Origin: a virus
Length of the DNA stretch: 64,000 nt
Direction: 5' to 3' (one strand)
IMG/VR virus record: IMGVR_UViG_3300032293_001294
Coordinates: 1 to 64,000 of that record
The translations under genes were made by a program, and so were the position numbers. Below, one piece after another: positions 27,428 through 64,000 of this stretch (positions within the stretch are counted from its first letter, which is position 1; every line of letters begins with the position of its first letter). Below the pieces are notes generated by a model. That model made no database searches and was not told where the DNA came from. It worked only from the letters and a program-made list of their open reading frames with translations.

Positions 27428-27441
27428 TTAGTTTGTGAATT

Positions 27442-42367: not shown

Positions 42368-42484
42368 CTAACTAAACTCTTTAATGGGGTAGTCGGGTAA
42401 GACATATCACTTTAGCAGATGCTCCTGCTTAACATATGTAACGTGGGTTCAACTCCCACCTACTCCACCAAAGAGTTTAGTTAG
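42368..42484. repeat. Perfect 15-bp inverted repeat enclosing the tmRNA-like element
   Basis: CTAACTAAACTCTTT (42368-42382) and AAAGAGTTTAGTTAG (42470-42484). The right arm begins with the last A of CCA. With a 3 x 3 internal loop it stacks directly on the acceptor stem. Confidence 0.85.
42386..42470 (+). ncRNA. tmRNA-type tRNA-like element (minimal)
   Basis: 85 nt. Acceptor stem GGGGTAG pairs fully with CTACTCC, including a G3-U70 pair (the alanine identity element), then A and CCA. The T-arm is a 5-bp GTGGG/CCCAC stem with loop TTCAACT, as in tmRNA 3' ends. Instead of a canonical D-arm and anticodon arm there is a stemless TCGGGTAAG segment, then ACATAT/ATATGT (a P2-like stem) around AGCAG/CTGCT. 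The inner sequence contains GCA GAT GCT CCT GCT TAA. A class II tRNA-Ser(GCU) with a 6-nt anticodon loop fits worse. No ordinary tRNA fold was found. Confidence 0.6.
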
Positions 42485-42554: not shown

Positions 42555-42598
42555 CTAGGATAGCAAGCTGATTACTTGCTACCTAGATTACTTTTATT
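42555..42598 (+). terminator. Intrinsic terminator of the plus-strand unit
   Basis: CTAGG + TAGCAAG pairing with CTTGCTA + CCTAG (one bulged A, 7-nt loop), followed by ATTACTTTTATTT on the plus strand. It lies between the converging units; on the minus strand there is no T-tract. Confidence 0.7.
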
Positions 42599-45500
42599 TC
42601 AATATTGTAGCTTGTGATTGTCTGTACCGAACGTATTGTCTCCATTGAATATTCTTAACTAAACGATATGGATTAGTAGTAGGTCTACGCATTTTACCAT
42701 ACTTAGTAAACCAATCCTTGTATATATTTTCATACTTAGCCCAACGTCCATTACGTCCATAACGATAACGACGTGGTGTATATTTTTTAAACTGACTTAT
42801 ATCATACCCAATACCAGATATAGTTCTAAATAAAGTTGCTTGTCTTGTATCTAATATACGTGCTAATGATGGATCATTGCGTGCAATATCTTCTCTAAGA
42901 TTTGTACCCAACACCATGTCAGATAAACCAGTAGCAGTATTTACAAATCTTGTACCAAACCCAACAACAGCTAATTGAGCAAACCCTTTTAAAGCATCAC
43001 CATCTTTAAATAAACTTTGTATACCACGTAATAAAGGAGATGCTCTTCTAGTAAGTTCTATGTCAGTATTATAAATAAGATTCATGACATCAAATGCCCC
43101 GTTACCTATTCTTAATCCCCAATCTTTAGCAAATGGAATCCATCCTTGACGGATTTGATATTTAGTAAAGTCATCATATTCTTTAGTTTCTTCATCTCTA
43201 TATTGTGCATACCAACCATCAATAAAGTCAGATAAAAATCTCCAATACTTAGGACTCATTAATCTATCAATCCAGTTATTAATAGAACGTACAGGGAAAG
43301 ATAAGAATGGAATATCAGCAAGCAATCTAGTTTCTAACGGAGAACGCATACCATAATTAAACCAGTGATTTAAAGAATCTATTGTAGCTTGATCAAATGT
43401 TTTGTTATACAACATTAAGTTATAAAAGAAGTTAGTAATACGTGCAGCGTTTTCTATCTTAGTATTAGAATCAGTATACCAAGCAACAGGATTAAACTTA
43501 TTTAACCAACCACCTTTAACTTTATCTAATTGTTTTACAATTTGTTTATAAGTCATATTAGATTTATATGAATCTTTATAACCTCTATATTGTTCAAAGA
43601 ATTTAGGAAGTAATTCAAAACGGTCTTTACGTAAGTAGTCACTAAGTGCTTCTGTATTCATGAACGCACTTAATTGTTTTAATAAAGGTTTTTTAAATTC
43701 ATACTCATCAACTTTTTCTGCAATAGTTTTATGTCTTACAATTTGTCCCTGATTATTTTTAGCATCAGTTCTTAAACCAGCAACCCAAGTATTATTAATA
43801 ATTCGGTTATCATACATTTCAATGTATTCACCGAACTCTGTTTTAGATGCAAAAATAACAGATTGTTTTAACAAGTCTAAATACTTATCAATATTATCAG
43901 CGTTAGCTTCTTTTAATTTTCTAAATAAATTGATAGCTACTTTACGTCTTGTTTCAATATGTCTATTATTATTTTTAAGTGTGTCAGATATTTTAATATA
44001 GTTGAGTAAGAATTCTTTAATTAAATCTAATTTATTATTAATTACATTAGAATCTTTAACTGGTAATTTACTTGCTTTTAAAACATCTTCATAATGTAAA
44101 CCAATATTAATGATACTAATACTTAATTCATCGCTATATTTTTCATACAACTTCATAAGTTCTAATGAGTTTAATGTACTATTAACATATCTATTAGACT
44201 CAATTAACTTAGGAATGATAATAGAGTTACTAAACATTTGATTAACACTATCAAAAATATTACGTGCTATGAAAGCGGCGTTTAATTTAGAAAGATTTTT
44301 TGACATGATTTGTAATGAGAAGAAAAACTTATCTACTTTATTAGGCAATTGATAAGGAGAGTACACATCATTCATCGTGTCCATCCAGTCATTTAAATCT
44401 ACAAAACCAATGATATCACCTTTTAAATTTTGATCATAGATTTCTTGGAAGTCTTCAAAGTTATCTACAATGACTTCTTTTAAAGTAAAGTTAATATTTT
44501 TATTTGTAGCTAAAATTAATTTAGGATCAATACGGTTATACACTTTATTATCAAATACAACTTTACCACCAGCTCGTTGCCATGCTTCAAGGTTTTCTAA
44601 AGCAGAAATCTTTTTACCATTTACAACTGTATCTTTAAATAATAAGTCATTATAAATAGAGTTATCAATTAAACCAAACTTTTGACCTACTTTTTCTATA
44701 ATGTTTAAATCTTTTTTCTTATTAGTTGGGAATAAAACATCATCATAACGTGGATCATATTTTCTAATGCGTTCTGTAACAAGTTTAAATCTACCTTCAT
44801 CAGGATCAGCGTGTCTAATCTGCACAAGTTTAAACTGTTGTTGCTTTGTTGTGTATAGTTCGTAAGCATTTTTTAAACTTCTAATTCTATTATTAGAACT
44901 ACTGTTATCAACCATGTTCTTTAATAAAGTAATGCGATTATACATACTAAGTAATGAACGTTCTTTATATGCTTTTAAATCTTGCTCAGTTAAAACTTTA
45001 GGTTTCTTAACGGTAGTATCACCCATACCTTGACCACCTAAACCATCATCATCAGGAGTTCTTAATAAAAGAATTAAACCACCGATGTTATCAACCACAG
45101 CTTTCTTTAAAAGTTTGCTTCTAATATCTGCTTCTTTAGTATTAAGTTGAGTTATTTCTTCCTTAATAGTTTCTACTGGAGACTTACTTTGCTCAAGTAA
45201 TTTAACGTAGTTGTCTAATGGATCAATGCTTTCTTCAATTTCTTTAATTTCATCTTGGAATAATGAAATTAATTCTTGAATCTTATCAGATTTTAACTTG
45301 TTATTTGTAGCTTTGTTGTTTAATTCAGACAATCTACTTATGTTATTTCTTGTTAATGTTTCTTCTAATTTAGATTTAATTTCTTTAGATTCAATAATCG
45401 TTTCAGCATCTGTTTTATATTTTCTATTTTTAGTATCAGAATTTATTTTTTTAATAGTTGCTTCATATTCTTTTTTAGTTTCTAAAAGAACTTCGATTTG

Positions 45501-48500
45501 TGTTCTAAAACTGTTAATTAAATCTTTATATTGTTTAACTGCACCATTAAATGTAGCGTAGTTTAAATTATCTTGCAGCTCTTCACTTACTTTATTCATA
45601 GCTTCTCTACTAATTTCTTCAATAGGTGCTTGTAAATGTTCCATTGTAGGATCATCGTTTATAGCAAGTTTTAATTGAAGATTATTTTCATCAACAGATT
45701 TATTGATTTCATCTTTAGTTGGGAAATCTTCTCTGGTTAATAATTTTTTATTACCAAATTCATCTGTTCTATAATACCCTTCTTCAAAGTTATTAATGTT
45801 ACTGAAGAAATTAAATATAATCTTTTCTTCATTTTCATATTTACTATTAAAGGTTTTTTGGAAATCAGCATCAGCATATCTAAAGTTAAATATTTTAATG
45901 TTAACAATGTTATTAATAACATTATCTTTTGATGTGGTAAATTTTTCTTCCCCAATATAATTTCTTCTTACAACTGCTGTAACAGAGTCAATGTAATCAA
46001 CAAAGTCTACAAGTTTATAGAATGGAATATCATGTGTATCAAAGAATTGAATAGCTTTTTCTAAATCTTTTAACTTTAAATTCTTTGGATTATCTAAACC
46101 TTTGTTTAATTCTTTTACATTGTTTATTAATTCTACAATAAGTGTGTCAGGGACAAACATATTAAATAAGAATACTTTTGCTTTTTGTTTTATTACTTTA
46201 TCTAAATCTGATTTAGCATCTGCAACTTTTGTATAAGAATCTGAAATTAAAACTTGTCTTCCTGGATTTTCTTCAAACCATTTTTTATTAACTTCACTCT
46301 TAGATGTACGTTTTAATGTATTATCAAAACGTTCATTCATTTCTCTGTCTAGATTAATAGCCATACCAAACAAACTATCATTGTCATTACTACCAATAAT
46401 AACTTTTCTTCTTGCAGATTTTTCAATTAGTTTTTTCGTCTTATCTAATATACGTTTGGAAGCATCTGCTGCTTTTACTTCTTGACCATAGTGTTTAGGC
46501 AAGTCAATAGGTTCTTGAATTAAGAATGACATTCTATTTTGTGCAAGTCTTTCAATAATTTGTTGATTAAAGTATTCATTTAATAATGTTTCTGGGAGTA
46601 CTTCAGATTTAGAACTTAAGTAATTTTTCATAACATTAACATCTACGAAGTAACGCATAGCAATTTCTTTTATAAAGTTTAAGTTTAATTTTTTCTTTGT
46701 TAAATCAGATAGATCTTTAGAATTAAAAATACTTAAATACTCTTCAATAACAGGGTCGTTTTGTTTTGATGTTGATTTAAGCCAATCTTTAACTTCTTGC
46801 ACTTCTAAAGTTTTATCAGTGTCTACTAAACTTAATGCTTTTAAATAAAAGTCTTTTAATTTTTTAAGTTCTTCTGCACCAGTTTTAACTTTATTTTTAA
46901 CAATTAATATATCATCTATGATTTCATTAATATCATCTTTGTAAATATCATAGAATTCTTTTTCAAAATTAGTAGCTATTCTAGATCTTAATACATCCGA
47001 AAACCAGTAAGCATTTATAAAGTAATTATAAAATTTATATTTAGAATCAAAATTTTCTTGAACAGCATCTTTTAATACAACTTCTCCTTCTACTTCTCTT
47101 GTGTTCTCTTCGTTTTGTAAAAGCTTTTGATACTCTTGATTGGATTCATTAACCCATGAGTCGTATTCATTTTTACTTAATGAATTAGATTTTAAAGCCA
47201 AAGCTTGTAATAAAGAGTCAAATGTAATTGCGCCATCTGTATCAATAGCACCTATTTGTTCCCAGAAATAACCATACTTTAACTTGTTAATTGTTTTATA
47301 CGTTGATAAGTGCGAAGAACTAAATTGACTCTTACGTTCAGAACCTACTCCTGGAATCGTTGTTTTACCTGCACGAACACGTTCAGTTGTTGTAATGTGT
47401 GTTTCATAATAAGAAAGGATATTAACTAAATATTCGTATACTTTAGAATATTCAGTTGTGCCAATTAATTCTTTGTTATTTAAAATATCACGTTCTTCTT
47501 TATCTAAAACCTTACTGTATATTTTAATTAAAGTATCAGGAATTTCAATGTTAGGAACTTGTTTAACAATCTTAGTTTCAACTTTTTCTTTTGTTTTAAA
47601 TAAATCTCCAATAGTTTTTTCAATCAAAGGAAGATACTTAACATCTTCAAGACTACTAAATCTAGAACCAATACCAGCAATCTTGCCTTGTAATAAAGGA
47701 GCATTATTAATCTTAGACCAAGTAAGTTTACCAGTAGATACAAACCATTGGTTTTGTTTAGGATCAAAAACATACACAGGTTTACCTAACTCTTGTGACA
47801 TAGCTACGCCCCAACCAGTACCACCATCTACTGTGCCATCATTTTTTAAATACCCGGCAGCAACAATTGTGTCTGCATCATTAATAATAAAGTGATTTCT
47901 TATTTGTAATAACTTTGTTATAGGATTAGTTGGAACATTTTTGTTTAATAATGCAGCAGCTTTAACTACAGCTTTTTCTGCTGTTTTAACTTCAACATCG
48001 CTCATATCATTAACAGACATACTAAGAACAAAATTAGGTTGATCTTTAGGTTTGTCAACATCTCTGGCTACGTATACATTTGTCTTAATATTATTTTCAC
48101 GTGCAAACTTTTGGAACAAACTATCAGAACCTGGAGCATTGCCACTACTTAATTGTACAAATGGTTGACCTTTAACTTTAACGTCAACTTTTTTAATGTC
48201 ATTTTCAGGTTTAACTTTCCCGTATATAACCTTTTTATTTTTAATTAAATCTTCAATACTATATAGTTTATCTATAAAGTCTTTGTTATTATTATAATAT
48301 TTTAATAGCAGATCTTGATTTTCATAATCTTTAAGACTTGTAATAACACCACCAAAGTTTTCACCTTTGTTTTTTAATTTAATATGAGCATTAACAAATG
48401 TTTTTAATAAGCTTGCAAAATTTGGATTGTTCTTTTCTTGATCTAAAGATTTAATTTCTTTACGATTAGTTTCAAAATAATCCATCAATTGATTTAATAG

Positions 48501-51500
48501 ATTGGCTTCTTGAATAAAGTCATATCTTTCAATAGTCAAATACTCTTGATTGCTTCTGATAACTTTAGGAATAGCATACTTACCTACAATATTTCTTTCA
48601 AATTTATAGGTTATTCTTTGTGGATATTTTAAATCATGGACAATATTGTAGTCTACAAAACCAGGCATAATACTTTGTACCAGTTTTTCAATACTATCTT
48701 TAGGACTAATAGTGTAATCTGGAATGTCGTTTTCTAAACTTCCAAAAAACTCTGTATCTGATTTTTCTAAATAACTTACAAGATTAACTACCTTACCTTG
48801 ATCCTTAATTTGTTTTTCATCAAGCGTATAGTAGTTATAATCTGTAGCTAAAAGCGGACGTAAAGGTGCGTCTTTACCTTCAATAGCATCTAAACCTACT
48901 ATAGCCATACCAAAAGCGTCACCGTCAGTATCAGCACCCATCATTGGATAACCGAATCCATTAACATAAGTTGCTGCTGACTTACTAAAACCAATAACTT
49001 TATACACAGGAACAGCGTTATAGTCTTGTTGTGGCGAACGGCTGCTTAATAAGTAAGCATATGTTTGATAGAACTTGTAATTAGTTCTTAATAACTTCTT
49101 AAGTTTTTCTTTATAATTAATGACAGGTCCTACAGCGTCCCAAAGTTTTTTGTTATCAGCTTCTAATAACCCGCGAGAATTTAAGAAATCTTCACGATCT
49201 TTACTATCTGTTAAGGTTAGTAAATGTTCTACATAATAGTTTATCTTTTCACTATCTGTAAGTTCTTCTACACCTATAATATTCTTTTGTTCTTTATTTC
49301 TATTTTGTAAAACACTCCAACCACTTGCAGGTATTACAATTTCACCGACATCTAGTGTTCTATCCAAAGCAAACTGCGCACGTATACCGCTTAATGTTTT
49401 AAACGACGCTTTATAGAATGCACTTTCCTTACCACTATAAAGTTTATCTGGAATATTAGCATCGGTATTCTTAACTAAAATATCTATTTCACTTTCGTAA
49501 TACTTCTTCATAGCAGGATCAACACTATTATTTAACATGCTTAAAAGTCTTACATACTTAATACCATTGGTATAAATAAGATTGTGGATAAGTTTATCCG
49601 CATATAACTTTTCTAAGTTATCTATTAATCCTTGTTCTTTTTTCTTAGTTATATTATCTTTAGTAACATTTAAAGTATTTAAAATATAATCTGAAAATCC
49701 TAGTATTCTTGGACGTGCTAGATTCTTAGCATTTGTTTGATCAAATGCAAATACTCTATTAAAATCATTTAAACCAATTTTGTTAAGTATTAATTGTAAT
49801 GCAGCAGGACCTATGGTTTGTCCAGTATCAACGTTGCTGTTATCATCTAATATATTAAATACAAACTTACCAATTGTCTTTGTATTAGATTCAGTATATT
49901 GAGCTTGTGGGTTATTCTCATGGTCAGCCATAACGTAGACGTTTCCTCTGACAAAAGAACCAGTCTTTAAATTAATGGTAGCGTAACGTCGTTCTAATAA
50001 TTTATATGCGTCTAATTTTGCAGTATTAATATCTTGATAGGTTAATGGTTTATTTTGTAGACGAGACTTAGCAATAACAATAGGAACTTTAATTGGTGGT
50101 AGTTTATCAATATCAGGATTGTTTTTAACATCATCAATTAAAACCCATTGATAGATATCATTTAAATCAAAACGAGCGTTTCCTTTTGCGTCATAAAAAC
50201 TAGTTAAAGATTTAATTTGATCTTTATATTTAAATAAAAGATTACTTAATCCTTCTAATTCATCTTGTGTTTTATAATATTTATTAATTAAAATACCATC
50301 TTCATTAATGTTCTTTTTAAACGTTGCGTTTAAATACTCTTTGATTTCAGGAATATCAAATACTTCTTTTATTCTAGACGGTACAACTGCTTTACCATCT
50401 TGGTATGTTTCATTGTTTAAATAACTTGTTATATAGTTATATAACATTTCTACATACATACCTGATGTTCCACGTTTTGTTACAGACTCTGCGTTTGATA
50501 AGAAGAAAGCACCATATGTTTTATGTAGATCTTGTATAGGATAGATAGTACCTTTAAAACCGTGGTGTGTACCTAACCAAATTTTAGCTGACAATTCATA
50601 GCCAAATTCTTTTAAGAAATCAGCATCAACACCAATTGTATCAAGACCAACACGTGGATCATTAACCATTACAATAGGTAAAACTGTACCAAATTGATGT
50701 AGTTCAGCATCTGCTTTATAGTTTTGGTACATTTCAGCACTCATAACGTTAGGCATAAATAATTGTGAATATTTATTACCAAACTTTCTAATAAATTTAT
50801 TTCTTAAATCAGGACTTAATGGATTTTTATTTATAAACGTTTCCATTAATTTTTTACCTGGGGCAACTTTATCAGGTATTTCTTTATACATACGATTAAG
50901 TAAACCAATAGTAGTATACGTAGCCATTAAATGCTTAGCATGTAATTGTGTACGAATAGGGTTATCATTCATCGCAAATGGGAAGTTAAATGGAAGTCTT
51001 GGTTTTAGTTTATACACAACAGCTGTACTTGCTTCTGAGTTTAATTCTAAAGAAATATTATTTTCATCCAACCATTTATGATCAATATGTTCTAAATTAT
51101 AGTCATAACTATACTCATCACTAATTTGGTTGACTAAAGAACCACGTTCAAGGGCATTGTATTTAGAAGTAATTCTATTATAAATACCATTATAAACTTC
51201 TTTTAAATTAATATTCTTAATACCTTTATCATTAAGTAAGTTAATTTGATTAATAACAGCTTTTCTAATTATCTTGCTGATATTAGTAATCTTTAAATAT
51301 CTATCACTTGCACCAAACTGTTCGTACGGGAATACTTCGCCTTCATTCTTTATTAAATAATTTAATAAAATATCAATTGCGTTTTTACTAGAATCAATTA
51401 CTTCACCTTTTTCATTTATATCAGGTATTAAATATTCTTTAGGTATATTATCTGGTCCTAATACGTACTCAGGTTTTCCACCTTTAGGTTGGAAGTAAAA

Positions 51501-54500
51501 CTGACTTTGCATATTTTTTAAAGTGTCAATTGCTTGGCTATCTAAGTTACCTTCGTCATCTAATTTAAAAACTTTAGTCATTAATTTTTCATCAGGTCTA
51601 TTCATGTATTCATTATCTTTTGTAGTATAAACATACTTTAATTCTAGTTTTAAAGTCTTATTTATGTTATCAAATGTAGCTGTATTAATTCTGTTATAAA
51701 CTTCATCGTATACAAAATACTTTGTAATAGGACCAAAAGGCCTTGAAAAGATTCTATTTGGTACTTGTCTTAATACACTAATGTCGTCACCTTTTCTAGG
51801 TTCTTCATATTCTATTTCAATATTTAAATTCTTTTTACGTGGAGATTTGTCGATTTCTTTTTTATCAATACGAGTAGAAGCCAACGTTTGGTATTGTTCA
51901 AGAGACATTCTATCGCTAGAAGGAACTCCTTTTATAATTTCTGTAATGGTTCTTTCCATTGCATTATCTACGTTTGTTTCTTGTACACCAACTTCTTTTA
52001 GAATATTTGTATAGTACACACTTAAAACATTTTCGTTTATTTTTCCAATGTCATTAGCTTTATAATTAGTTAAAAAATTAATACTGTTTTGTAAGGATTC
52101 TAATTTTTGATTAATAATACTGACAAAGATATCTTTATCATAGAAGAAAGTTCTACTGTCGTATAAATCGTCTAAGGTATACTTAGAGAAGTTTTCAATA
52201 GATCTAATATCATTTATGTTTTTAAATAATCTAAACAACGTTGTTTGATTACGATCAAAGAAGTTTTTATTATTAGAATCATTCGTTAACGATAACAAAT
52301 ATTTATTAATATCTTGTAAGTTTACTTTAATTTCTTGTTTGTTACTATCTAGATAATACCAATAAGACTGTTCTTTATTATATTTATATTCAAATATTTC
52401 TATGTTTTTTCCAAGACCTAGCGCTTTATACTTAACAAGGTTATCATTTACAATCTTAAAGTTATTTTCTAATTCTTTTAAATAAATATCTAAATCAGAT
52501 TTTTGTTGGTTTTTAAGTACAGTTAATTCTTTATTTAAGATATCACGTACAGCTTCATCATCGATAGAAGTTCTGCCTTTAAAGATTAAATCAATTTGAT
52601 TTTGTAGTGCAGCTATTGCAGACTTTTGCTTAGTCGGATCTTTAATAACATCGATAACTGATTCATCAAATACTTTTAACATTAGACTTTCTTGTTTGCT
52701 TAGATCTTTTTCTTGTCTTATAAAACCAAGTAAGTTATTTAAATTACTTATCAAATCATTTAATTTCTTATTGGTTTGGTCTATTCTATTTTCCATAACC
52801 CCTAGATTAGATAACCCAATAACATTATTTAAAACAACTTTTGGATTATTCAAAGCAATCTTAATACTAGATAAACTAGTGCTATTATCTTCTGCAATTT
52901 TTCTTGCAGCTGAAAGCATTTCTTCTAAGATAACATTTCTTTCTTTAGTTAATCCTACTTGGCTAATTACTTGTGTATCATTTGAAGGATCACCATTTAA
53001 TAAAGTTTCAATTTCAGATTTTAGTTCGTTTATACGTTTAACTTTTTCTGCTTTTCTTTCTTTAGTAGCTTGAATAATTTCATCTTTGGTTTTACCTTTT
53101 TCAAGCATAGCAATTAAATCATTTTTAGCAGCTTTAGCTAATTCAATTGTTTTTAATTTTTTACCGTAGTCTATTTCAATATCTTTTAACTCTAGGTCTT
53201 TACCATACGTAGCGTATACATGCTTAGTAATTTCTTTCTTAAGCGTGGTATTAGCATCATCTTTATTAAAAGTAACAAGGTTATTTGGACCTCCAACAAT
53301 TAAACGATCAAAAGTATTTGGTGCGTTTTCTACAAATTTAGTAACAGCATCTAAAATTATCTTATGAATTTGTACTGTTTGTTGATCTGTACTATAACTG
53401 TTTAAAAACTTTATAGCCAAAGTATTAATAACTTTTTCTTTTATTTTTGGGTCTCTGTTGATAACGTATTTTTCTAATTCATTTGAAACATTACCCAATT
53501 CACCATCATTAAAGTCTAAAAGTTTCTTTTTTAATTCATCATTAAAAATATAATCAGTATCATACAGTGCTTCTTTAGTAAATTCATTTAGTTCAAGCTT
53601 CCACTTAGCTCTAATAGCCTGCTCAATAAGTTCACCAACTGCATCCAGCTCTTGTGGTTTAGCTTCTAAAGAATTTTTATTAGCAAGAATTTTGTTTTCT
53701 AATCTACTAATAATTAATTCAAGTTGTTTTTTGTATTCTTTATTACGTTCAATATCATTGAGTTTAGGATCAATGTTTTTTAATACATTATTAATAGAGT
53801 TATCTTCTTTAATACTACGATAGTATTCGTTAACAACAAGCTTCTTACCAACTTGACTAATAAAGTTTTGTATAATACCAAAGTCAAACTTATTACCGTT
53901 GTGTGCGACAATCTTAAAGTTATTTTCTACACCAATAATTTGGATAAATGCACGTATAAAGTTGTCGTTGTTTTGTTTAGTACTAACAGTTTCAATTAAT
54001 TTATTAAGTTTTTCTCTAGCTTTTAATTCAAGTTGTTCGTCGTTTAAAATTAAACCATCATTTTCCCATTGTTTTTTCCAAACTTCATTCTTTTGGAAAC
54101 GATAAAATTCTTCAATTTCTTTTGTATAACTACCGTCTTCATTAATAGCGTTATAAAATAACGAGCTGTTAATGTATGCGTTATGAATTTGCAACTCACC
54201 ATTCTTATCGATATATAACATACTCATTTGATATGGAAATTCTTGTCCATTTTGTTTGTATGTTTCAATATCAATAACAGCAAACTCATCGGTAAGTCCT
54301 TTTTCTTTAAGAACATTCTTTTGATGAATATAGTTTAAAGCAGTAGGCATAATATCAACTAAAGAATCGTGTAAAGCAAATTCACCTTCTGTATTAACCT
54401 TATTAATTAAAGATTCTTTGGTGTATCCTTTTGTTTTACTAGTAATAATTTCGGCAACTTTTTCTAATACTTCTTGGTTATTTTTTGTATCTTTTAATTG

Positions 54501-57500: not shown

Positions 57501-60500
57501 AATGTTTCCTAATCTATCATTTAAGAATGAATTTGTACTTCTAATGTATCGAATGTTTTCAAATCCTTTATTTAACTGGAACTTAACACCAGTTTTTAAA
57601 GAACTTCCATAGCCAAGAAGATCGTTAATACTGATTGTTTGTAGTTTAATGTTATTAGATTTTGCTTTTATTGATTCTAATTCAAAAGCTTTCTTTATAT
57701 CATCGTTTGATATTTCAGCTTTGCCATCTGTTTTTAACTTTTCTCTAATAAACTTTTCTTTTTGATAGTTAATAAACAACATGAGTAAACTAGCTTTATA
57801 AAAGTCTTCTGTTGTTTCTTTGGTTTTAATATTTGCGTGGGTATTAATAAAATGTTCAATGTCATTGTATCCATCTTTTTGTATTAAAGTAATGACTTCG
57901 TCTTGATCTAAACCAAAAACACTCCAGTTATTAATTGCTTTTTTAAAGTCACTATTATTAGGACGTATTACTTTTCTAAAGTAATTAAAGAATTCTTCGC
58001 TATTTTCTAATAGATTAATTCTATTAATTTCAAAAATGCGTCTATAAGAAAGCTTCTTTTCTAATTTAGGTTTATCAGCTTTTGCTGCTTCTTTTATTTG
58101 ATCTCTATAAAAGTCTTTCTTTTGTAAGTCTTTATCTTCAAAAACTTTTTTAAACTCTTCTATATCAACAGGACTTATTATAGTTTCTCCAAAACCTTTA
58201 GAACCTATTTCAATAACAGTGTCTATTTGACTTTTTGTAAAACCTTTATTTCTTAATTCTTCTTTAATAAGCTCCAGTTTATTTGTTTCGCTAAATACTA
58301 AAGGAGTTTTTGGCGTGTATATTTTTTCATCTTTAGATGAATATAAATAATTGTTAGCACTATCAAGCACACTACCAGCAGCTTGTATTAAGTTTATTTT
58401 TTCTTTATCGTCTAAATCGTAGCCAAACTCACCTTTAATATAATCAACAATATAAGTATCTATAGTTATATCTTCTATATTGTCTACTATATTTTGTCGG
58501 TTATTCACTAAATCTACAACTTCACCTGCATCTTTAAATTTTGTGTAGGTTAAAAAATCTGTTTTATTGCTTATAAACTTTAAATGTTTCTTATTGAATT
58601 TATATTTTTGAGATTTATTAGGCGTGCTTTCAACTTCTTTTTTAAGACTTAAAGCTTGTTTATAAAGATTTAAATTGTATCCAGTTAACTTATCTACACC
58701 GATTTGTTGCCCGTTGCTAACTAATCTATTTAAAACATCGTAATAATTTAAATAAGCTTGGATATCAAAACGATCACCAGGATAACGTTCCATATATTGT
58801 CTGATAGATACTAAGTAAGACTTAATAACATAGGCGTAAATTAAGTGATCAGTTATACGATCAGCATTTTTATATCCATTTGGATTGTTTTTAAATATTC
58901 TTTGTGCAATCGTCTTAAATATTTTTCTTACACTAGGTTCAACACCTACATATTCTTTTAACTTTTCATACAGCTCTTGTGCGTTAATTTTTTGAGTTTG
59001 AAAATCATTAAATACATTCTTTAAAGAAACCATCTTAGCAATACTAATACTCTTATTTTTAACTTTGTCTTTAATCTTCTTATGATTTTTTACACCTTCT
59101 TGTATTACAGTTTGTAAATTGTCTAGATAATATTGTTGTTTTTCTAAGTGTTTCTTTGCATTTATTTCAAAAGTATCTAATACAGTATTTCTCTTTTTTA
59201 CATCAAACATATTACCGAAAGCATCTGAAAGTTTTTCAGTTAACGGCTTGCTTAAAAGTTCGTGTGCAGTTAGTTGGTTTCTAACATTACTAATTGTAAC
59301 AATCTTAGGTTGTGCATTTTCAATATGTTCTTTAATAATAGGTACAAGTTCTGTATATGCTTTGTTTTGTGTGCTTTCAACATGAGTAAGTAAATCATTT
59401 ACAATGTTATAAAATCTTTCTAATTTGTTTAAATGCTTTTCATCCATGATATTGTAGTAGCTTAAATCTTTAATATTAATATTGTTTTCATATCTGGATT
59501 TAACTGCTTCTAAACTTTTTACAATCTTATCCCAAACATTTTTGTCTTTAAGATCAGCAACAGTCATAGGATTAACATCTTTTTCTAAGTTATTAATATT
59601 ATATTCTTTTGTTAAATACTTACCATTTAAAAAGGTAGATCCGATATATTCTATTTCTAAACCACTATAATCAAACCCTTCAAAGAACTCAAAAAATACA
59701 ATATTAAATAAAGCTTCTTTTTCAGTTTCTTTAAATTGTTCTGTATTGTATAAATCTATTCCTTCGTTATAAAATTTATAGATAGGTACAAATCCTTTTA
59801 AATTGTCATTAGAGTATAGATTTTTATAGAATGTATTTAAGTTTTTTACAAGTGAACTTGGGTTGCCAAGCTTAGTAATAAGATTTAAATCATTTAACCA
59901 ACCTTTAACTACGCTGCCAATTGTTCTATTAATACTACTTTGAACGTTTATAAACCGTGGTAAAAATTTTACAGTGTCATCGACTTTATATAAATCAATA
60001 TCAGCATAATCTTTTTTATTATTCTTAATATTTTCAATTTCTTTATATTTAGATTCACTTAAAATATATACTTCGAAAACATCGTAAGTATCTTTGTTGC
60101 CATTCATGAGTTGTTTAAATGTTGCACGATCTTCTTCCATGGTTTTTAAAGACCACTTGTTATCTGGAACAATAACAATAGCTCTACCATTATCAGTAAT
60201 AATAGGTACTATATTTTCTTTATAGTCTACTACATATTGATTAAAGTCTTTATCATTTAAAGGTACTTTGTTTTTAATAAGTTCTTCACCAGTCATGGTA
60301 TTACGCATGTTTTCCACTCTAGTCTTTAGTTCTTGTTCCCATAAAGATTTGTAAATAACATCAAAAGATTGATTAACTTTTAATCTATTAATAACTTTAT
60401 TGCGAACGGCAGTACTATTGTTTCCGTATACGTAGTTAATTAAAAGGTTGTTTAAAGAAGGTATACCTTCTCCAGCATTTTGGATAGTTTTTACTTCAGC

Positions 60501-63500
60501 TCTTCTAACTAATCCTGTTTCATTTTTGTTGTTAACAGCTAATACATAGTTATCTGCGTCGGTATTAATAATGTTATTAAAGTATGATTCAGCAGTTACA
60601 CCGTCATCATTTTTAATAAGATCCTTATATAATTCTTCAAAACCAGCATCTGTTTGAGGATTAACACCAAGACGTTCGTTAATGTTTTTATATTGTTCTT
60701 GAAGCTTTTTATATACTTCAACTCTGTTTTCAAACGCGCTTAAAACAAACTTATAGTTATTACGTTTAATATTAGTTACGTCATTTTTATAAAGTTCTAA
60801 TTCAGCTTTTGCTTTTTCTTCTAATTCTTTATAACCTTTTAAACGTGTAGTTTGTGCTAAACCTTTAACATCTTTTACATCTTTAAAGAAAATATTTCTA
60901 ATAATTAGTTTAGCATCTGATGCTTTTATGTTTGGATCAATGCCTTTACTTAATTCAATTAATGCTAATAAGTTTAAAGTTTCTAAACTTCTTAGTTGAC
61001 CATTCACATTATTAACATTAATCTTAAATAAATCATTGTTATTATCATCTTTAAATACAATAAAGTCGTTTGGTTTAGACCCTGCACTAATTAAATCTAA
61101 AGCTTCTTTATAAGTATCTTCTATTTTCTTTCTATATTTAGTAGCATAGTTTACATTTAAAAAGGTTTCAAACGGTATATTGTTTTTATTATCAACGGTA
61201 TAAATAGAGTTAGTAAGTGTTAATAATTTTCTAGCCGAGTTTATAACTGGATCAGAAAAGATTTTATACAACTCCGGTGTAGCATCTTTTTGTGACAGAA
61301 ATAATTCTTTATCAATTGCTAAAGTATTATAGGATAAAACTGTATCCCATGTTTGTACAATCCGAGTATACTCAGCAATTGCTAATGCTCTTATTTCAGC
61401 TAAGTCCCCTAATTTTTTAGCATCATATGTCTTAGCCATTTCACTTACAACATTGTTTAATAGATCTATATAATCGTTATAGCTAATGCTATGGACAAAT
61501 ATTAAATCAAATAAACTAACGTTTGTTTCTTTTTCATTTTGTTTAAGTGTAAAAATAACGCTATTATTTTTACCTTGGTTTTCAACCACTTTTAAATCAG
61601 TAAAGTTTTTAAAATCTTCAATTAAATATTTATCAGCATAGTCTTCTGTTAAATTCTTTTGGATAGTATCTAATACTTTAAATATTAGATGGTCTCTGTC
61701 TTCTGGTTTCTTTAAGAAATCTTCTTCAATTCCTCTAATACTAGCATCTTGTAAGTATGCAAGTTTTGTTGTTGATGGATTTGTTTCTGCAATTTTAGGA
61801 CTAATACTAGCTACAATATTTTGTTCTTCTTCTCTTAAATTATTGATAAGTCTTTTTAAAGTACTAATAAACGGTATACTTTCTTTAGAACGACTTACTT
61901 GATTATTTAATATATTATTAGCATTATCAAATATTTCTAATAAAGTATCTTTGTTTGATTCATTTTTATTGTATTCATTTATTAAATCTTTTAGATATGC
62001 TCTAGCAGATTTATTAGTTACATCTTCAGTTCCGGTTCTAACAAGTACAGTTTTCGCAGCACTGACTAAATAATTTTTAAATAAATCTGTAAAGTTTTCT
62101 TTAGCAAATTTATTATCTTTGATAGAAATATCAACATCTATTTTTTGTTTAGTTAAATATTCATCATATATAATCTTAGCAATTTCATCTGCACTCATTG
62201 TAATTTTAATATTTTTTACACTAATAATATCTCCATACTCTTTTAATAACTCTGCTAATTCATACGAAAATATCATGACTTTTTCTTTGTATTCAAGATC
62301 ACTTCTATTTTTTGAATTTAAAAAGTTAATAAAAGAAATACTAGATTTACCTTTTTCTAATGAAAGTTGGCGCATTTTTAAACTGGCGGTGTACTTATTA
62401 TTTTCAATAACGTAGTTAGGTTCGTTTAGTATATCGTCAATAACCTTTATTTTTTCTACAGTAGCATCTAAAGATTTTGATGTTACTAAATCCAAAACAT
62501 TTTCTTTTAGTTGATTTGTTACAAGTAACGGTGAATATATATCATCAGAGCCTGGACCTAGTACAGAGTTGACTACAGTTTTATCTGTAAACTTACTGCT
62601 ATCATTCTTTACATTATTAAATACTGCTTTTGCTGCGTCTTTATATTTTAATTCATCAAGACGTTCTTCTGCTGCATCGTTTTTCATTGCATCAAATTGC
62701 TTGCTTAGTTCTTCAATTTCGTCATCTCTTAATGTTTCTAAAGCTAAAAGATCTTTTCCTTGTGAGAATTTTCTAATCTCATCAAGATCAAAGTCAGTTA
62801 AAAATGCTTTAGTAACTTCTGATTTAAGTTGGTTATCTATGATGTTATTAGGTATATTAATGTTCTTTAAAGACTTTTCAATATCAATATTTTTTATTTC
62901 TTTAGGTAGTTGCTTTGTTAATGCACTCTTTTTAAAGATGCTTAAAGAAGTAGCGTCTGTATTAAAATTATCATAGATATATGATTTAACATACTTATAT
63001 ACAGGCGATCCTTTGAATAACTTTTCAAAGTTATCTTGCAAGTTTAAACTTAAGAATTTATTTAATTCTTTTTCATCTGTAATATTCTTTGTTTCATTTT
63101 TATAAATGTCATCAAACTCTTTTATTTTTTGAGCAACAGCTTCTAATGATTTACTTAGTGGGTTATTGCCGGATACTTGTTTAATGTTTTCTTGTATAGC
63201 ATATCTGTACAAATCTTTTAAATCTAATTTATTGGTATAAATAAATCTTGTTTTAGACCCACCTGAAAATCTATAGGCAATATCAATTTGTTTTGCGACT
63301 TCTCGTACTTTGTCTCCAGAAAGTAAAAATGTTTTATCTTTTAAATCTATGTCACTTGTAGCAATAAATTCTACAATTAATTTATACTTATCTTCTGTTT
63401 CAAGCTTTAACCAAGCTTCTGGATCAACATTAAACAAAGGTTGATTAATATGTAATAAGTCATCATAAATGTCTTTAGTATTTTTAAAGTAGTTGTTTAA

Positions 63501-64000
63501 GATTCTTGAAACTCTAGTTTCAAATGTTTCTTTTATAGATATACCTACGTCAAAAATAACTTTATTACTTTGTTGTACACCAATAAAGAATTGATCTACA
63601 TCTGTAACACTTTCATTAAAGTAATGTGTTGTCTTTTTCTTTGTAATAGGATCTTCAACAATAATACTTAAGGTCAAACCGTTGTAAAAACTAACTAGGT
63701 TAATTGCTTTATCTTTTAAAATAGCAACCGCTTGTTTGTGTTTTTCAGCATCAAAACCACCAACAAGATCAGCAGGTCCTTTTTTACCAGCACTTATATT
63801 AGCAAGCAAGGTGCTTAATTCTTTTTCTTTAATAGCTAACTCGTCGTTTGTTTTATTAAGTTCGTCTCCGATATTGTTTTTTGTTGTAGTTAAAATCGTG
63901 ATGTCTTTAATTAACTTATCTTTAGCTTCTTTTTCAGCAGTACTATTTAATACGTTTGTTTTAATATCAATTTCTTTTTGTTTTTCAGCTTGTTGTTGTA
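42594..64000 (-). CDS. Giant virion RNA polymerase/polyvalent protein (5' end beyond the window)
   Basis: The frame is open from the stop at 42594 to the right edge without a start that can be trusted (7,135 codons in the window, over 800 kDa). Visible parts: long charged helices; a DEDDh exonuclease (DIET near 54270, HNGNKFD near 53890, HKIILDA near 53360); RNA polymerase barrels, GFKGTIYPI with a nearby Lys (50521-50578) and GADTDGDAFG (48915-48950); a SLOG-type Rossmann domain (GNAPGSDSL to GIGSR, about 47680-48170); and a C-terminal polyvalent-protein-like region (AAFIARNIFDS near 44260, DIPFLSFPVRSIN near 43300) with a basic tail. The barrels identify a crAss/YonO-type polymerase, probably packaged and ejected with the DNA for early transcription. 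About 25-28% GC. Confidence 0.85.
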   Translation of the reverse strand, partial: QQQAEKQKEIDIKTNVLNSTAEKEAKDKLIKDITILTTTKNNIGDELNKTNDELAIKEKELSTLLANISAGKKGPADLVGGFDAEKHKQAVAILKDKAINLVSFYNGLTLSIIVEDPITKKKTTHYFNESVTDVDQFFIGVQQSNKVIFDVGISIKETFETRVSRILNNYFKNTKDIYDDLLHINQPLFNVDPEAWLKLETEDKYKLIVEFIATSDIDLKDKTFLLSGDKVREVAKQIDIAYRFSGGSKTRFIYTNKLDLKDLYRYAIQENIKQVSGNNPLSKSLEAVAQKIKEFDDIYKNETKNITDEKELNKFLSLNLQDNFEKLFKGSPVYKYVKSYIYDNFNTDATSLSIFKKSALTKQLPKEIKNIDIEKSLKNINIPNNIIDNQLKSEVTKAFLTDFDLDEIRKFSQGKDLLALETLRDDEIEELSKQFDAMKNDAAEERLDELKYKDAAKAVFNNVKNDSSKFTDKTVVNSVLGPGSDDIYSPLLVTNQLKENVLDLVTSKSLDATVEKIKVIDDILNEPNYVIENNKYTASLKMRQLSLEKGKSSISFINFLNSKNRSDLEYKEKVMIFSYELAELLKEYGDIISVKNIKITMSADEIAKIIYDEYLTKQKIDVDISIKDNKFAKENFTDLFKNYLVSAAKTVLVRTGTEDVTNKSARAYLKDLINEYNKNESNKDTLLEIFDNANNILNNQVSRSKESIPFISTLKRLINNLREEEQNIVASISPKIAETNPSTTKLAYLQDASIRGIEEDFLKKPEDRDHLIFKVLDTIQKNLTEDYADKYLIEDFKNFTDLKVVENQGKNNSVIFTLKQNEKETNVSLFDLIFVHSISYNDYIDLLNNVVSEMAKTYDAKKLGDLAEIRALAIAEYTRIVQTWDTVLSYNTLAIDKELFLSQKDATPELYKIFSDPVINSARKLLTLTNSIYTVDNKNNIPFETFLNVNYATKYRKKIEDTYKEALDLISAGSKPNDFIVFKDDNNNDLFKINVNNVNGQLRSLETLNLLALIELSKGIDPNIKASDAKLIIRNIFFKDVKDVKGLAQTTRLKGYKELEEKAKAELELYKNDVTNIKRNNYKFVLSAFENRVEVYKKLQEQYKNINERLGVNPQTDAGFEELYKDLIKNDDGVTAESYFNNIINTDADNYVLAVNNKNETGLVRRAEVKTIQNAGEGIPSLNNLLINYVYGNNSTAVRNKVINRLKVNQSFDVIYKSLWEQELKTRVENMRNTMTGEELIKNKVPLNDKDFNQYVVDYKENIVPIITDNGRAIVIVPDNKWSLKTMEEDRATFKQLMNGNKDTYDVFEVYILSESKYKEIENIKNNKKDYADIDLYKVDDTVKFLPRFINVQSSINRTIGSVVKGWLNDLNLITKLGNPSSLVKNLNTFYKNLYSNDNLKGFVPIYKFYNEGIDLYNTEQFKETEKEALFNIVFFEFFEGFDYSGLEIEYIGSTFLNGKYLTKEYNINNLEKDVNPMTVADLKDKNVWDKIVKSLEAVKSRYENNINIKDLSYYNIMDEKHLNKLERFYNIVNDLLTHVESTQNKAYTELVPIIKEHIENAQPKIVTISNVRNQLTAHELLSKPLTEKLSDAFGNMFDVKKRNTVLDTFEINAKKHLEKQQYYLDNLQTVIQEGVKNHKKIKDKVKNKSISIAKMVSLKNVFNDFQTQKINAQELYEKLKEYVGVEPSVRKIFKTIAQRIFKNNPNGYKNADRITDHLIYAYVIKSYLVSIRQYMERYPGDRFDIQAYLNYYDVLNRLVSNGQQIGVDKLTGYNLNLYKQALSLKKEVESTPNKSQKYKFNKKHLKFISNKTDFLTYTKFKDAGEVVDLVNNRQNIVDNIEDITIDTYIVDYIKGEFGYDLDDKEKINLIQAAGSVLDSANNYLYSSKDEKIYTPKTPLVFSETNKLELIKEELRNKGFTKSQIDTVIEIGSKGFGETIISPVDIEEFKKVFEDKDLQKKDFYRDQIKEAAKADKPKLEKKLSYRRIFEINRINLLENSEEFFNYFRKVIRPNNSDFKKAINNWSVFGLDQDEVITLIQKDGYNDIEHFINTHANIKTKETTEDFYKASLLMLFINYQKEKFIREKLKTDGKAEISNDDIKKAFELESIKAKSNNIKLQTISINDLLGYGSSLKTGVKFQLNKGFENIRYIRSTNSFLNDRLGNIILDEENLKTFDEYDSSYKGIYFKDNNVETLVRRHQRNAYKHLYRDYEAGFVGEKTYELMQLTKDAIADISAEHNSPSWQVASGKVVYNDLRKSWHDLFKELKPDYKDKEFIKPSEIDTALKSLSVSKASVNFFINTYNKLIFDAKTNYLKNHGKDLDVSGKVKTDEVLIKEFDDVIKNAIDQIKLFSEKNQSFIIFNDNNIKAILGFIYTARYSNSEKLTMDLSSFIDKQIKNDVKYKQYRYKQVDTKIERIIESNENDLTKAEAIAKLQGKTFNELTKEKQNTILQNVYLMNFIKGSKDFFGKDRWFDTYKAAVGPKRTMQSFTTLEEKKEEVLKLELDLLNKKLLNTKNENVNILNKTLGENTQQELFGKYTNSIPLLTQNTMDLILDTNKELDTVEQSISVEQKAFNKEKLELINNMFIVYPGLKQLFDEQYFKSIEEEKLKINNDVIELNKKTSQRIKDEYKAYLESIATIKEIESSNVYQITRISKGKNIASNFAMFKDAYAAYKVPGTDKFITTLEDLKAVYDMSKQTNLEERLKKARDIAENTFKKFKGKERSNYTNYFNSISLFNKRLDREELNRLRLEFNDLENVENMLPALLKSSEEYNKLIKTNVVSNAKSIAIDDSTLSKIDKYHSKAIEKNKALLRGFGIQIRDYVYRIDSNYKEDKKLTLKDYINILDSYAITSITSLDNKLVDNIPSYKALISLSDKNAEKQILLSVLLDYKVQELATTKGGKITETEYRSLESFINTTIGRKTNQDILNYIEDEASSGKNVDVFKHGFGSNDVEVDLSVFKNPEHLSYATTLKNNINNKLKNKYNKVLSKTVVDIKDILNKSVSLMNRLSIDESIKSSIIFSVDPKERVKKVEDRINLNVSNTKALYSNLNKKVFDNTIDTSNVSLSELVSFVVENNETTKIVELNNKKQDINNKLKDANEYLNLINRYKSNLGVIKTVEDTLPIKQEDVLKAEKASETSYKSELEFVGKKLSNLELFKQYYKDQLKDTKNNQEVLEKVAEIITSKTKGYTKESLINKVNTEGEFALHDSLVDIMPTALNYIHQKNVLKEKGLTDEFAVIDIETYKQNGQEFPYQMSMLYIDKNGELQIHNAYINSSLFYNAINEDGSYTKEIEEFYRFQKNEVWKKQWENDGLILNDEQLELKAREKLNKLIETVSTKQNNDNFIRAFIQIIGVENNFKIVAHNGNKFDFGIIQNFISQVGKKLVVNEYYRSIKEDNSINNVLKNIDPKLNDIERNKEYKKQLELIISRLENKILANKNSLEAKPQELDAVGELIEQAIRAKWKLELNEFTKEALYDTDYIFNDELKKKLLDFNDGELGNVSNELEKYVINRDPKIKEKVINTLAIKFLNSYSTDQQTVQIHKIILDAVTKFVENAPNTFDRLIVGGPNNLVTFNKDDANTTLKKEITKHVYATYGKDLELKDIEIDYGKKLKTIELAKAAKNDLIAMLEKGKTKDEIIQATKERKAEKVKRINELKSEIETLLNGDPSNDTQVISQVGLTKERNVILEEMLSAARKIAEDNSTSLSSIKIALNNPKVVLNNVIGLSNLGVMENRIDQTNKKLNDLISNLNNLLGFIRQEKDLSKQESLMLKVFDESVIDVIKDPTKQKSAIAALQNQIDLIFKGRTSIDDEAVRDILNKELTVLKNQQKSDLDIYLKELENNFKIVNDNLVKYKALGLGKNIEIFEYKYNKEQSYWYYLDSNKQEIKVNLQDINKYLLSLTNDSNNKNFFDRNQTTLFRLFKNINDIRSIENFSKYTLDDLYDSRTFFYDKDIFVSIINQKLESLQNSINFLTNYKANDIGKINENVLSVYYTNILKEVGVQETNVDNAMERTITEIIKGVPSSDRMSLEQYQTLASTRIDKKEIDKSPRKKNLNIEIEYEEPRKGDDISVLRQVPNRIFSRPFGPITKYFVYDEVYNRINTATFDNINKTLKLELKYVYTTKDNEYMNRPDEKLMTKVFKLDDEGNLDSQAIDTLKNMQSQFYFQPKGGKPEYVLGPDNIPKEYLIPDINEKGEVIDSSKNAIDILLNYLIKNEGEVFPYEQFGASDRYLKITNISKIIRKAVINQINLLNDKGIKNINLKEVYNGIYNRITSKYNALERGSLVNQISDEYSYDYNLEHIDHKWLDENNISLELNSEASTAVVYKLKPRLPFNFPFAMNDNPIRTQLHAKHLMATYTTIGLLNRMYKEIPDKVAPGKKLMETFINKNPLSPDLRNKFIRKFGNKYSQLFMPNVMSAEMYQNYKADAELHQFGTVLPIVMVNDPRVGLDTIGVDADFLKEFGYELSAKIWLGTHHGFKGTIYPIQDLHKTYGAFFLSNAESVTKRGTSGMYVEMLYNYITSYLNNETYQDGKAVVPSRIKEVFDIPEIKEYLNATFKKNINEDGILINKYYKTQDELEGLSNLLFKYKDQIKSLTSFYDAKGNARFDLNDIYQWVLIDDVKNNPDIDKLPPIKVPIVIAKSRLQNKPLTYQDINTAKLDAYKLLERRYATINLKTGSFVRGNVYVMADHENNPQAQYTESNTKTIGKFVFNILDDNSNVDTGQTIGPAALQLILNKIGLNDFNRVFAFDQTNAKNLARPRILGFSDYILNTLNVTKDNITKKKEQGLIDNLEKLYADKLIHNLIYTNGIKYVRLLSMLNNSVDPAMKKYYESEIDILVKNTDANIPDKLYSGKESAFYKASFKTLSGIRAQFALDRTLDVGEIVIPASGWSVLQNRNKEQKNIIGVEELTDSEKINYYVEHLLTLTDSKDREDFLNSRGLLEADNKKLWDAVGPVINYKEKLKKLLRTNYKFYQTYAYLLSSRSPQQDYNAVPVYKVIGFSKSAATYVNGFGYPMMGADTDGDAFGMAIVGLDAIEGKDAPLRPLLATDYNYYTLDEKQIKDQGKVVNLVSYLEKSDTEFFGSLENDIPDYTISPKDSIEKLVQSIMPGFVDYNIVHDLKYPQRITYKFERNIVGKYAIPKVIRSNQEYLTIERYDFIQEANLLNQLMDYFETNRKEIKSLDQEKNNPNFASLLKTFVNAHIKLKNKGENFGGVITSLKDYENQDLLLKYYNNNKDFIDKLYSIEDLIKNKKVIYGKVKPENDIKKVDVKVKGQPFVQLSSGNAPGSDSLFQKFARENNIKTNVYVARDVDKPKDQPNFVLSMSVNDMSDVEVKTAEKAVVKAAALLNKNVPTNPITKLLQIRNHFIINDADTIVAAGYLKNDGTVDGGTGWGVAMSQELGKPVYVFDPKQNQWFVSTGKLTWSKINNAPLLQGKIAGIGSRFSSLEDVKYLPLIEKTIGDLFKTKEKVETKIVKQVPNIEIPDTLIKIYSKVLDKEERDILNNKELIGTTEYSKVYEYLVNILSYYETHITTTERVRAGKTTIPGVGSERKSQFSSSHLSTYKTINKLKYGYFWEQIGAIDTDGAITFDSLLQALALKSNSLSKNEYDSWVNESNQEYQKLLQNEENTREVEGEVVLKDAVQENFDSKYKFYNYFINAYWFSDVLRSRIATNFEKEFYDIYKDDINEIIDDILIVKNKVKTGAEELKKLKDFYLKALSLVDTDKTLEVQEVKDWLKSTSKQNDPVIEEYLSIFNSKDLSDLTKKKLNLNFIKEIAMRYFVDVNVMKNYLSSKSEVLPETLLNEYFNQQIIERLAQNRMSFLIQEPIDLPKHYGQEVKAADASKRILDKTKKLIEKSARRKVIIGSNDNDSLFGMAINLDREMNERFDNTLKRTSKSEVNKKWFEENPGRQVLISDSYTKVADAKSDLDKVIKQKAKVFLFNMFVPDTLIVELINNVKELNKGLDNPKNLKLKDLEKAIQFFDTHDIPFYKLVDFVDYIDSVTAVVRRNYIGEEKFTTSKDNVINNIVNIKIFNFRYADADFQKTFNSKYENEEKIIFNFFSNINNFEEGYYRTDEFGNKKLLTREDFPTKDEINKSVDENNLQLKLAINDDPTMEHLQAPIEEISREAMNKVSEELQDNLNYATFNGAVKQYKDLINSFRTQIEVLLETKKEYEATIKKINSDTKNRKYKTDAETIIESKEIKSKLEETLTRNNISRLSELNNKATNNKLKSDKIQELISLFQDEIKEIEESIDPLDNYVKLLEQSKSPVETIKEEITQLNTKEADIRSKLLKKAVVDNIGGLILLLRTPDDDGLGGQGMGDTTVKKPKVLTEQDLKAYKERSLLSMYNRITLLKNMVDNSSSNNRIRSLKNAYELYTTKQQQFKLVQIRHADPDEGRFKLVTERIRKYDPRYDDVLFPTNKKKDLNIIEKVGQKFGLIDNSIYNDLLFKDTVVNGKKISALENLEAWQRAGGKVVFDNKVYNRIDPKLILATNKNINFTLKEVIVDNFEDFQEIYDQNLKGDIIGFVDLNDWMDTMNDVYSPYQLPNKVDKFFFSLQIMSKNLSKLNAAFIARNIFDSVNQMFSNSIIIPKLIESNRYVNSTLNSLELMKLYEKYSDELSISIINIGLHYEDVLKASKLPVKDSNVINNKLDLIKEFLLNYIKISDTLKNNNRHIETRRKVAINLFRKLKEANADNIDKYLDLLKQSVIFASKTEFGEYIEMYDNRIINNTWVAGLRTDAKNNQGQIVRHKTIAEKVDEYEFKKPLLKQLSAFMNTEALSDYLRKDRFELLPKFFEQYRGYKDSYKSNMTYKQIVKQLDKVKGGWLNKFNPVAWYTDSNTKIENAARITNFFYNLMLYNKTFDQATIDSLNHWFNYGMRSPLETRLLADIPFLSFPVRSINNWIDRLMSPKYWRFLSDFIDGWYAQYRDEETKEYDDFTKYQIRQGWIPFAKDWGLRIGNGAFDVMNLIYNTDIELTRRASPLLRGIQSLFKDGDALKGFAQLAVVGFGTRFVNTATGLSDMVLGTNLREDIARNDPSLARILDTRQATLFRTISGIGYDISQFKKYTPRRYRYGRNGRWAKYENIYKDWFTKYGKMRRPTTNPYRLVKNIQWRQYVRYRQSQATILK

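What the first reader, a model, noticed from the sequence alone, without database searches (positions are those of the whole stretch)
42594..64000. One reading frame with exonuclease, RNA polymerase and SLOG domains
More than 7,100 codons without a stop and still open at the edge, a third of the window. It joins a DEDDh nuclease with all three motifs, both double-psi barrels of an RNA polymerase and a SLOG Rossmann domain, with a polyvalent-protein-like C-terminus. crAss-like phages carry packaged polymerases with this core; the added nuclease and nucleotide-binding domain and the sheer length are not features I know for them. It may be cleaved into working parts before or after ejection.
Basis: partly seen in the sequence, partly recalled or inferred. 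Interest (0 to 1): 0.85.

Follow-up and report, generated by a model that had tools for sequence, protein, structure and literature searches.

The report
Giant phage protein with RNA polymerase
A small group of uncultured phages spends a third of its genome on one protein of about 8,000 amino acids that never contains cysteine and carries the signature of an RNA polymerase, so it is probably shot into the bacterium to start reading the phage's genes.

Summary
The frame is real and longer than reported: on the 75,709-base record it runs from an ATG at 67280 to a stop at 42594, 8,228 aa, 946 kDa, 33% of the record. Six distinct relatives, this one included, each carry one uninterrupted frame of 7,596-8,437 aa. 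Both RNA polymerase barrel signatures are conserved, in the order of single-chain two-barrel polymerases. AlphaFold gave no usable fold, so the barrels rest on motifs. The nuclease has exonuclease motifs I and II in all six. The SLOG domain is real but occurs only here; the N4-like phage Pylas has one next to its unrelated virion polymerase. No polyvalent-protein domain was found at the C-terminus, and the phage is not crAss-like: its head and replication genes are nearest to Paenibacillus phages API480/SV21. New facts: no cysteine in 48,060 residues, as in N4-type virion polymerases and P23-45 gp96, and giant identity of 22-53% where terminase stays at 82-94%. Best reading: an ejected virion RNA polymerase of two-barrel type with nuclease-like and swappable cargo domains, a new variant of a known kind.

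The parts
42594..64000 (-). Giant frame, window part; full gene is 42594-67280 on the 75,709-base record (8,228 aa, numbered G1-G8228 from ATG 67280)
53781..54308 (-). DEDD exonuclease-like core, G4325-G4500: motif I D4337-x-E4339-T, motif II A-H-N-G-x-x-F-D4466-F
   Evidence: Invariant in 6 of 6; PolB exonuclease/TREX1/TREX2 are 38 of 42 weak PDB profile hits, best E 0.028; PF10108 in 2 of 5 members, best E 0.013
53451..53468 (-). Possible third exonuclease motif, Y4605-x4-D4610 (uncertain)
   Evidence: D invariant among five in alignment A4, not aligned in the sixth, which reads YVDAD
48411..51143 (-). Two-barrel RNA polymerase core, G5380-G6290
   Evidence: alignment A1
50448..50585 (-). 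DPBB-B (beta-type) signature, G5566-G5611: K-x-W-L-G-x-H-x-G-F-K-G ... S-V-x-x-R-G-x-x-G-x-x-x-E
   Evidence: E. coli RpoB 1065 KMAGRHGNKG...GVPSRMNIGQILE
48918..49040 (-). DPBB-A (beta'-type) signature, G6081-G6121: R-S-P ... M-M-G-A-D-T-D-G-D
   Evidence: RxP to DxDGD 36 residues, against 35 in E. coli RpoC and 38 in P23-45 gp96 and gp64
47766..48191 (-). SLOG (DprA/YpsA-like) domain, present in this copy only
   Evidence: phrog_768; gap in the relatives
42597..42791 (-). Conserved basic C-terminal tail, G8164-G8228 (last 60 residues pI 11.1)

Best explanation
The gene encodes a virion-packaged, ejected, single-chain two-barrel RNA polymerase of about 0.95 MDa in a phage with a genome near 76 kb. 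Inferred course: the late gene is read from its own promoter; the cysteine-free chain is packed in the head, perhaps through its conserved basic tail; on infection it is threaded out with or ahead of the DNA, its hydrophobic N-terminal region lodges in the cell envelope, and the polymerase core transcribes the first genes. The exonuclease-like domain and, in this copy, the SLOG domain arrive at the same moment to act on nucleic acid and on host nucleotide signalling. Shown: the frame, its conservation, the motifs, the absence of cysteine, the optional SLOG. Inferred: packaging, ejection, activity, roles of the domains.
For: Both barrel signatures, B before A, in five distinct giants; in 2,000 shuffles of each, B then A within 1,200 residues occurred 0 times. 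Among 266 decoy ORFs pattern A hit only RpoC, gp96 and gp64, and pattern B only RpoB. The sixth giant, found after the patterns were set, has A and the K-WLG-GFKG core. Zero cysteines in 48,060 residues: expected in this protein 8 at the rate of the phage's virion-type ORFs and 65 at the rate of its other ORFs. P23-45 gp96 (5,002 aa) and the Pylas virion polymerase (3,819 aa) also have none; papers state the trait for N4-type polymerases and link it to ejection (passages). Hydrophobic segments lie in the first 500 residues in 5 of 5 giants, with one further segment elsewhere in one of them. The gene is in the late-gene orientation, directly after major capsid and a small gene that also matches API480.
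Against: AlphaFold did not fold the core (pLDDT 39) and gave a weak nuclease model with no significant fold match. Profiles of the core find no polymerase in the PDB and no match in phi14:2 gp66, P23-45 gp96 or gp64. A three-sequence profile of known DPBB-A segments reaches the right site in 3 of 5 giants above all 100 shuffles, but weakly (best i-E 0.26); G000 and G005 are not among the 14 rows printed. No phage-specific early promoter was found in the early region. I found no virion proteomics for these phages; host unknown. Cysteine is scarce in the other virion-type proteins of this phage too (6 in 5,984).
Confidence: 0.75

Rival explanations
1. A tail tape measure protein fused to a polymerase, as in Thermus phage P23-45: the phage would have a very long tail and the giant would set its length as well as transcribe.
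For: P23-45 gp96 is a cysteine-free 5,002-aa tape measure with an N-terminal two-barrel polymerase. The DPBB-A signature here resembles those of gp96 and gp64 in spacing. No separate tape measure gene was seen among the ORFs scanned (only a weak TMP_3 hit, E 0.0025, in a 315-aa protein placed like a scaffold).
Against: The polymerase lies at G5380-G6290, not at the N-terminus. Terminase, portal, major capsid, PolA and primase match API480, a phage named as a podovirus. Not every ORF was scanned for tail genes.
Confidence: 0.15
2. A polyprotein: translated as one chain and cut into working parts before packaging or after entry.
For: The length, and long weakly conserved stretches between conserved blocks.
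Against: No evidence was found, and no search for cleavage sites or proteases was made. N4-type and P23-45 giants are described as single chains (passages). Both ends are conserved, which fits either view.
Confidence: 0.12
3. The polymerase and nuclease likenesses are short-motif coincidences; the giant is a structural or ejection protein of other function.
For: No fold or profile search confirms the domains.
Against: The signature residues form dense clusters of invariant columns in the core across giants 22-53% identical, and shuffles do not give them in order.
Confidence: 0.07
4. Assembly artefact or chance open frame.
For: None found.
Against: Six distinct intact homologues, one of them identical in two records; frame-specific lack of cysteine codons.
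Confidence: 0.01

Closest known systems
Thermus phage P23-45 gp96 (tape-measure-fused virion RNA polymerase)
   Same: Cysteine-free giant, single-chain two-barrel polymerase with R-x-P then DxDGD 38 residues on (36 here); packaged
   Different: 5,002 aa; polymerase at the N-terminus; fused to a tape measure; no profile match
N4-type virion RNA polymerase (Schitoviridae gp50)
   Same: Cysteine-free giant ejected by a short-tailed phage, likely membrane-spanning N-terminus, similar genome size; in phage Pylas it also carries a phrog_768 SLOG domain
   Different: T7-like polymerase, 3,400-3,800 aa; phrog_2206 hits Pylas but not this protein
crAss-like phage polymerase (phi14:2 gp66)
   Same: Single-chain two-barrel polymerase brought in by the virion (passages)
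   Different: 2,180 aa, no profile match; different phage lineage; 2 cysteines
Paenibacillus larvae phage API480
   Same: With SV21 the nearest named relative in terminase (32%) and PolA (29%), and related in portal, major capsid, primase
   Different: 45 kb, no polymerase signature in its ORFs and no profile match to the giant

Membership tests
Two-barrel RNA polymerase | DxDxD metal-binding motif of DPBB-A | tested here: met
   DxDGD in 6 of 6 giants, R-x-P 36 residues before it. The same pattern misses the known polymerase gp66
Two-barrel RNA polymerase | DPBB-B lysine-glycine signature before DPBB-A on the same chain | tested here: met
   K-x-W-L-G...G-F-K-G in 6 of 6; full pattern with the final E in the first five giants, D for E in the sixth
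Two-barrel RNA polymerase | Double-psi beta-barrel folds | tested here: inconclusive
   AlphaFold pLDDT 39
Ejected virion RNA polymerase | Absence of cysteine | tested here: met
   0 in 48,060 residues
Ejected virion RNA polymerase | Present in virions and ejected | not testable with these tools
   needs proteomics
N4-type virion polymerase (phrog_2206) | T7-like polymerase domain | tested here: not met
   no phrog_2206 hit in the giant; hit with E 0 in Pylas
Crassvirales | Structural genes of the crAss-like clade | tested here: not met
   terminase and PolA best hits are Paenibacillus phages; portal and capsid match API480
P23-45-type tape-measure fusion | Polymerase at the N-terminus of a tape measure | tested here: not met
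   polymerase at G5380-G6290
DEDDh exonuclease | Motifs I (DxE) and II (D) | tested here: met
   6 of 6
DEDDh exonuclease | Motif III H-x4-D | tested here: inconclusive
SLOG superfamily | Profile match | tested here: met
   phrog_768 E 2.2e-9 and 3.6e-12; Pfam YAcAr only E 0.053
Polyvalent proteins | Recognised polyvalent-associated (LPD) domains | tested here: inconclusive
   no Pfam hit of that kind in the giant or in the five C-terminal or N-terminal members

The most novel reading that the evidence does not exclude
One polypeptide is the whole entry machine: envelope-spanning N-terminus, polymerase that pulls in and reads the genome, nuclease-like domain, and exchangeable anti-defence cargo such as SLOG, all evolving far faster than the rest of the phage under pressure from host defences. 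The SLOG fused independently to this two-barrel polymerase and to the unrelated N4-type polymerase of Pylas would then mark a general habit of loading counter-defence domains onto the first protein to enter the cell.
Probability: 0.3. Interest if true: 0.88.

Novelty: new variant of a known kind. Interest (0 to 1): 0.75.

Why it matters
If true, these phages carry a virion polymerase about 1.6 times the length of P23-45 gp96 and more than twice that of N4-type enzymes, in a lineage for which I found none described. It would be a further case of an ejected two-barrel polymerase, would make cysteine exclusion usable as a sequence test for ejected proteins, and would link transcription start, genome entry and early counter-defence on one chain.

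Tried and rejected
Structure: both AlphaFold jobs (five-sequence alignments) were too weak. Foldseek on the nuclease model gave nothing with E up to 0.001; DexA, RNase AS, ExoI, PolB and IS621 were among its weak rows. VIA rows cover mainly helices 184-273. I did not search with the polymerase model because its confidence was too low.

Profiles: Pfam and PHROGs on the whole giant gave only SLOG with confidence; PHROGs on the G001 giant nothing of note. PDB profile searches of the polymerase core and of each barrel gave no polymerase. tblastn of the core and of the C-terminus against named phages: no match; N-terminus: best E 0.03, a tail protein of Pseudomonas phages, taken as chance.

Relatives: scans with the polymerase, C-terminus, a DNA motif and terminase gave the same five large records; a first scan with the window's polymerase alone gave none; only the N-terminal scan added G010. 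Four further terminase records (L003, L004, L006, L009; 4-8 kb) are too short to judge. Two distant terminase hits (L047, L048) were not followed. No relative in species genomes by polymerase or terminase. Host not found.

Early promoter search: nothing convincing. A near-leaderless start was considered general but the sixth giant has a leader with a ribosome site.

Paper searches showed no paper describing this protein or a polymerase with both a nuclease and SLOG; only listings were read there, apart from the papers named in the report.

Full report
What is there. The window is the first 64,000 bases of a 75,709-base virus record. The frame reported at 42594-64000 goes on beyond the edge and is complete: ATG at 67280, stop at 42594, 8,228 aa, 946 kDa, 32.6% of the record. 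I number residues G1-G8228.

It is conserved. Terminase matches in IMG/VR led to nine records, of which five of 56-76 kb hold the giant; four are 4-8 kb pieces. A later scan with the N-terminus added an 81,831-base record, G010. All six carry one uninterrupted frame: 8,437 (two records, identical protein), 8,038, 7,903, 7,858 and 7,596 aa. With the window this makes six distinct giants.

It evolves fast. Among the first five distinct phages, aligned giants are 22-53% identical while their terminases are 82-94% identical. Portal (79-83%), PolA (81-96%) and the Sak4-like protein (82-95%) of the window against the other four are also high. G010 is 22-33% identical in the giant and 65% in terminase. 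Conservation is highest at the ends (G1-G600, G7600-G8228), then at the nuclease and polymerase motifs.

Polymerase. DPBB-A: R-[SW]-P, then 36 residues on D-[NT]-D-G-D. E. coli RpoC has R425 and D460 (35), P23-45 gp96 and gp64 have 38. DPBB-B, about 500 residues earlier: K-x-W-L-G-x(1-2)-x-G-F-K-G and then S-x-x-x-R-G-x-x-G-x-x-x-E, which follows E. coli RpoB KMAGRHGNKG...GVPSRMNIGQILE. In 2,000 shuffles of each of five giants pattern A occurred in 1-3, B in 2-10, both in order in 0. Of 266 decoy ORFs A hit only three, all known polymerases, and B only RpoB. I chose the patterns after seeing the family; G010 was found later and has A and the first half of B, but D in place of the last E of B. 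The known polymerase gp66 does not match pattern A. Sequence profiles do not reach known polymerases, which agrees with a published remark that many two-barrel families share no significant similarity beyond the DxDxD region (PMC10770324, section 12 read). A profile comparison of the DPBB-A segment with three known ones gave E 4e-4 for that single comparison, probability 36%. AlphaFold with five sequences failed.

Nuclease. D4337-x-E4339-T and A-H-N-G-x-x-F-D4466-F are invariant in six giants. The PDB profile search gave 42 weak hits, of which 38 are PolB, TREX1 or TREX2 (best E 0.028); Pfam's PolB-like exonuclease PF10108 hit 2 of 5 members (best E 0.013). The third motif is unsettled: H4639-x4-D4644 is in this copy only; Y/H-x4-D at 4605-4610 is kept in most but not cleanly. 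The model (pLDDT 58) gave no significant fold match. I call it DEDD-exonuclease-like; it may be inactive. The motif names are recalled knowledge of the superfamily.

SLOG. phrog_768 matches window 47766-48191. The other giants lack this stretch. A tblastn hit led to the virion RNA polymerase of Klebsiella phage Pylas, where phrog_768 matches residues 984-1112 (E 2.3e-11) just before the N4-type polymerase domain. So two unrelated virion polymerases have each gained such a domain. A review proposes that viral SLOG domains counter NAD-derived immune signals (PMC9503650, passages); that role here is inference.

No cysteine. The six giants hold 48,060 residues and no cysteine. In G000 the two other reading frames of the same strand have 84 and 451 cysteine codons. 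Expected for G000 are 8 at the rate of nine virion-type ORFs of this phage (6 in 5,984) and 65 at that of ten other ORFs (34 in 4,298); the sorting into these groups is mine. P23-45 gp96 and the Pylas polymerase also have none, phi14:2 gp66 has 2. Papers note it for N4-type polymerases and tie it to passage through tail or periplasm (PMC3715699, PMC2784036, PMC3915230, passages). This is my main ground for ejection.

Which phage. Terminase and PolA are nearest to Paenibacillus larvae phages API480 and SV21 (32% and 29%); portal, major capsid (record 67760-69760), a small neighbour and primase also match API480, which has no polymerase signature. Neither crAss-like nor N4-like by these tests.

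How it would work. N4 gp50 is packaged in about four copies, has a likely membrane-spanning N-terminus and is ejected (PMC12633501, passages). By analogy this chain would be packaged, ejected and would begin transcription. The hydrophobic segments in the first 500 residues and the basic tail (pI about 11) fit envelope and DNA contact but are not tests. Against: no early promoter motif was found, and I had no virion data.

Gene start. In five of six a TTTTTTTATG-TATAAT-like element lies 10-12 bases before the ATG, without a ribosome site, while 31 of 41 ORFs examined in the window's record have one. The sixth has TATACT and a leader with AAAGGAG.

Verdict. New variant of a known kind: an ejected virion polymerase of two-barrel type, of unusual length, with a nuclease-like domain and an optional SLOG domain. 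Whether it is the longest phage protein known I did not test.

Noticed in passing
window 42386-42470 (+), outer stem 42367-42484: Small RNA like the tRNA-like half of tmRNA (Rfam tmRNA 28.5 bits, below the gathering score 47, E 5.6e-10): acceptor stem with a G3-U70 pair, T arm and CCA, but a short hairpin in place of the mRNA part, within a 16-bp outer stem; fold z -6.9. Present at the same place in 4 of 5 phages compared, with a changed inner hairpin that still looks paired. ARAGORN reports nothing. Perhaps a decoy of tmRNA or alanine tRNA.
   Followed up: partly
L040 8845-20304, residues 984-1112 of the protein: Klebsiella phage Pylas virion RNA polymerase carries a SLOG/DprA-like domain (phrog_768, E 2.3e-11) before its polymerase domain.
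   Followed up: partly
record 67280-67310 (L002 7280-7310): Promoter-like TATGCTATAAT follows a T-run, with the giant's ATG 11 bases on and no ribosome site, so a near-leaderless start; kept in 5 of 6 giants.
   Followed up: partly
window 9415-10725 (-): 436-aa protein with a BspA-type leucine-rich repeat (Pfam LRR_5, E 3.9e-9) among the structural genes; perhaps a receptor-binding part.
   Followed up: no
record 67760-69760 (L002 7760-9760): Major capsid protein matches API480 in two blocks (27% and 41%) with about 170 extra residues between them.
   Followed up: no
last about 300 bases of the giant gene: The C-terminal end is up to 92% identical in DNA between window and G005 or G001 where the gene just upstream is far less alike, which hints at local exchange or strong constraint.
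   Followed up: partly
window 25446-28400: GC rises to 0.41-0.43 and much of 26.1-27.0 kb has only short ORFs and AT-repeat stretches between the two divergent gene blocks; perhaps an origin or early control region.
   Followed up: no
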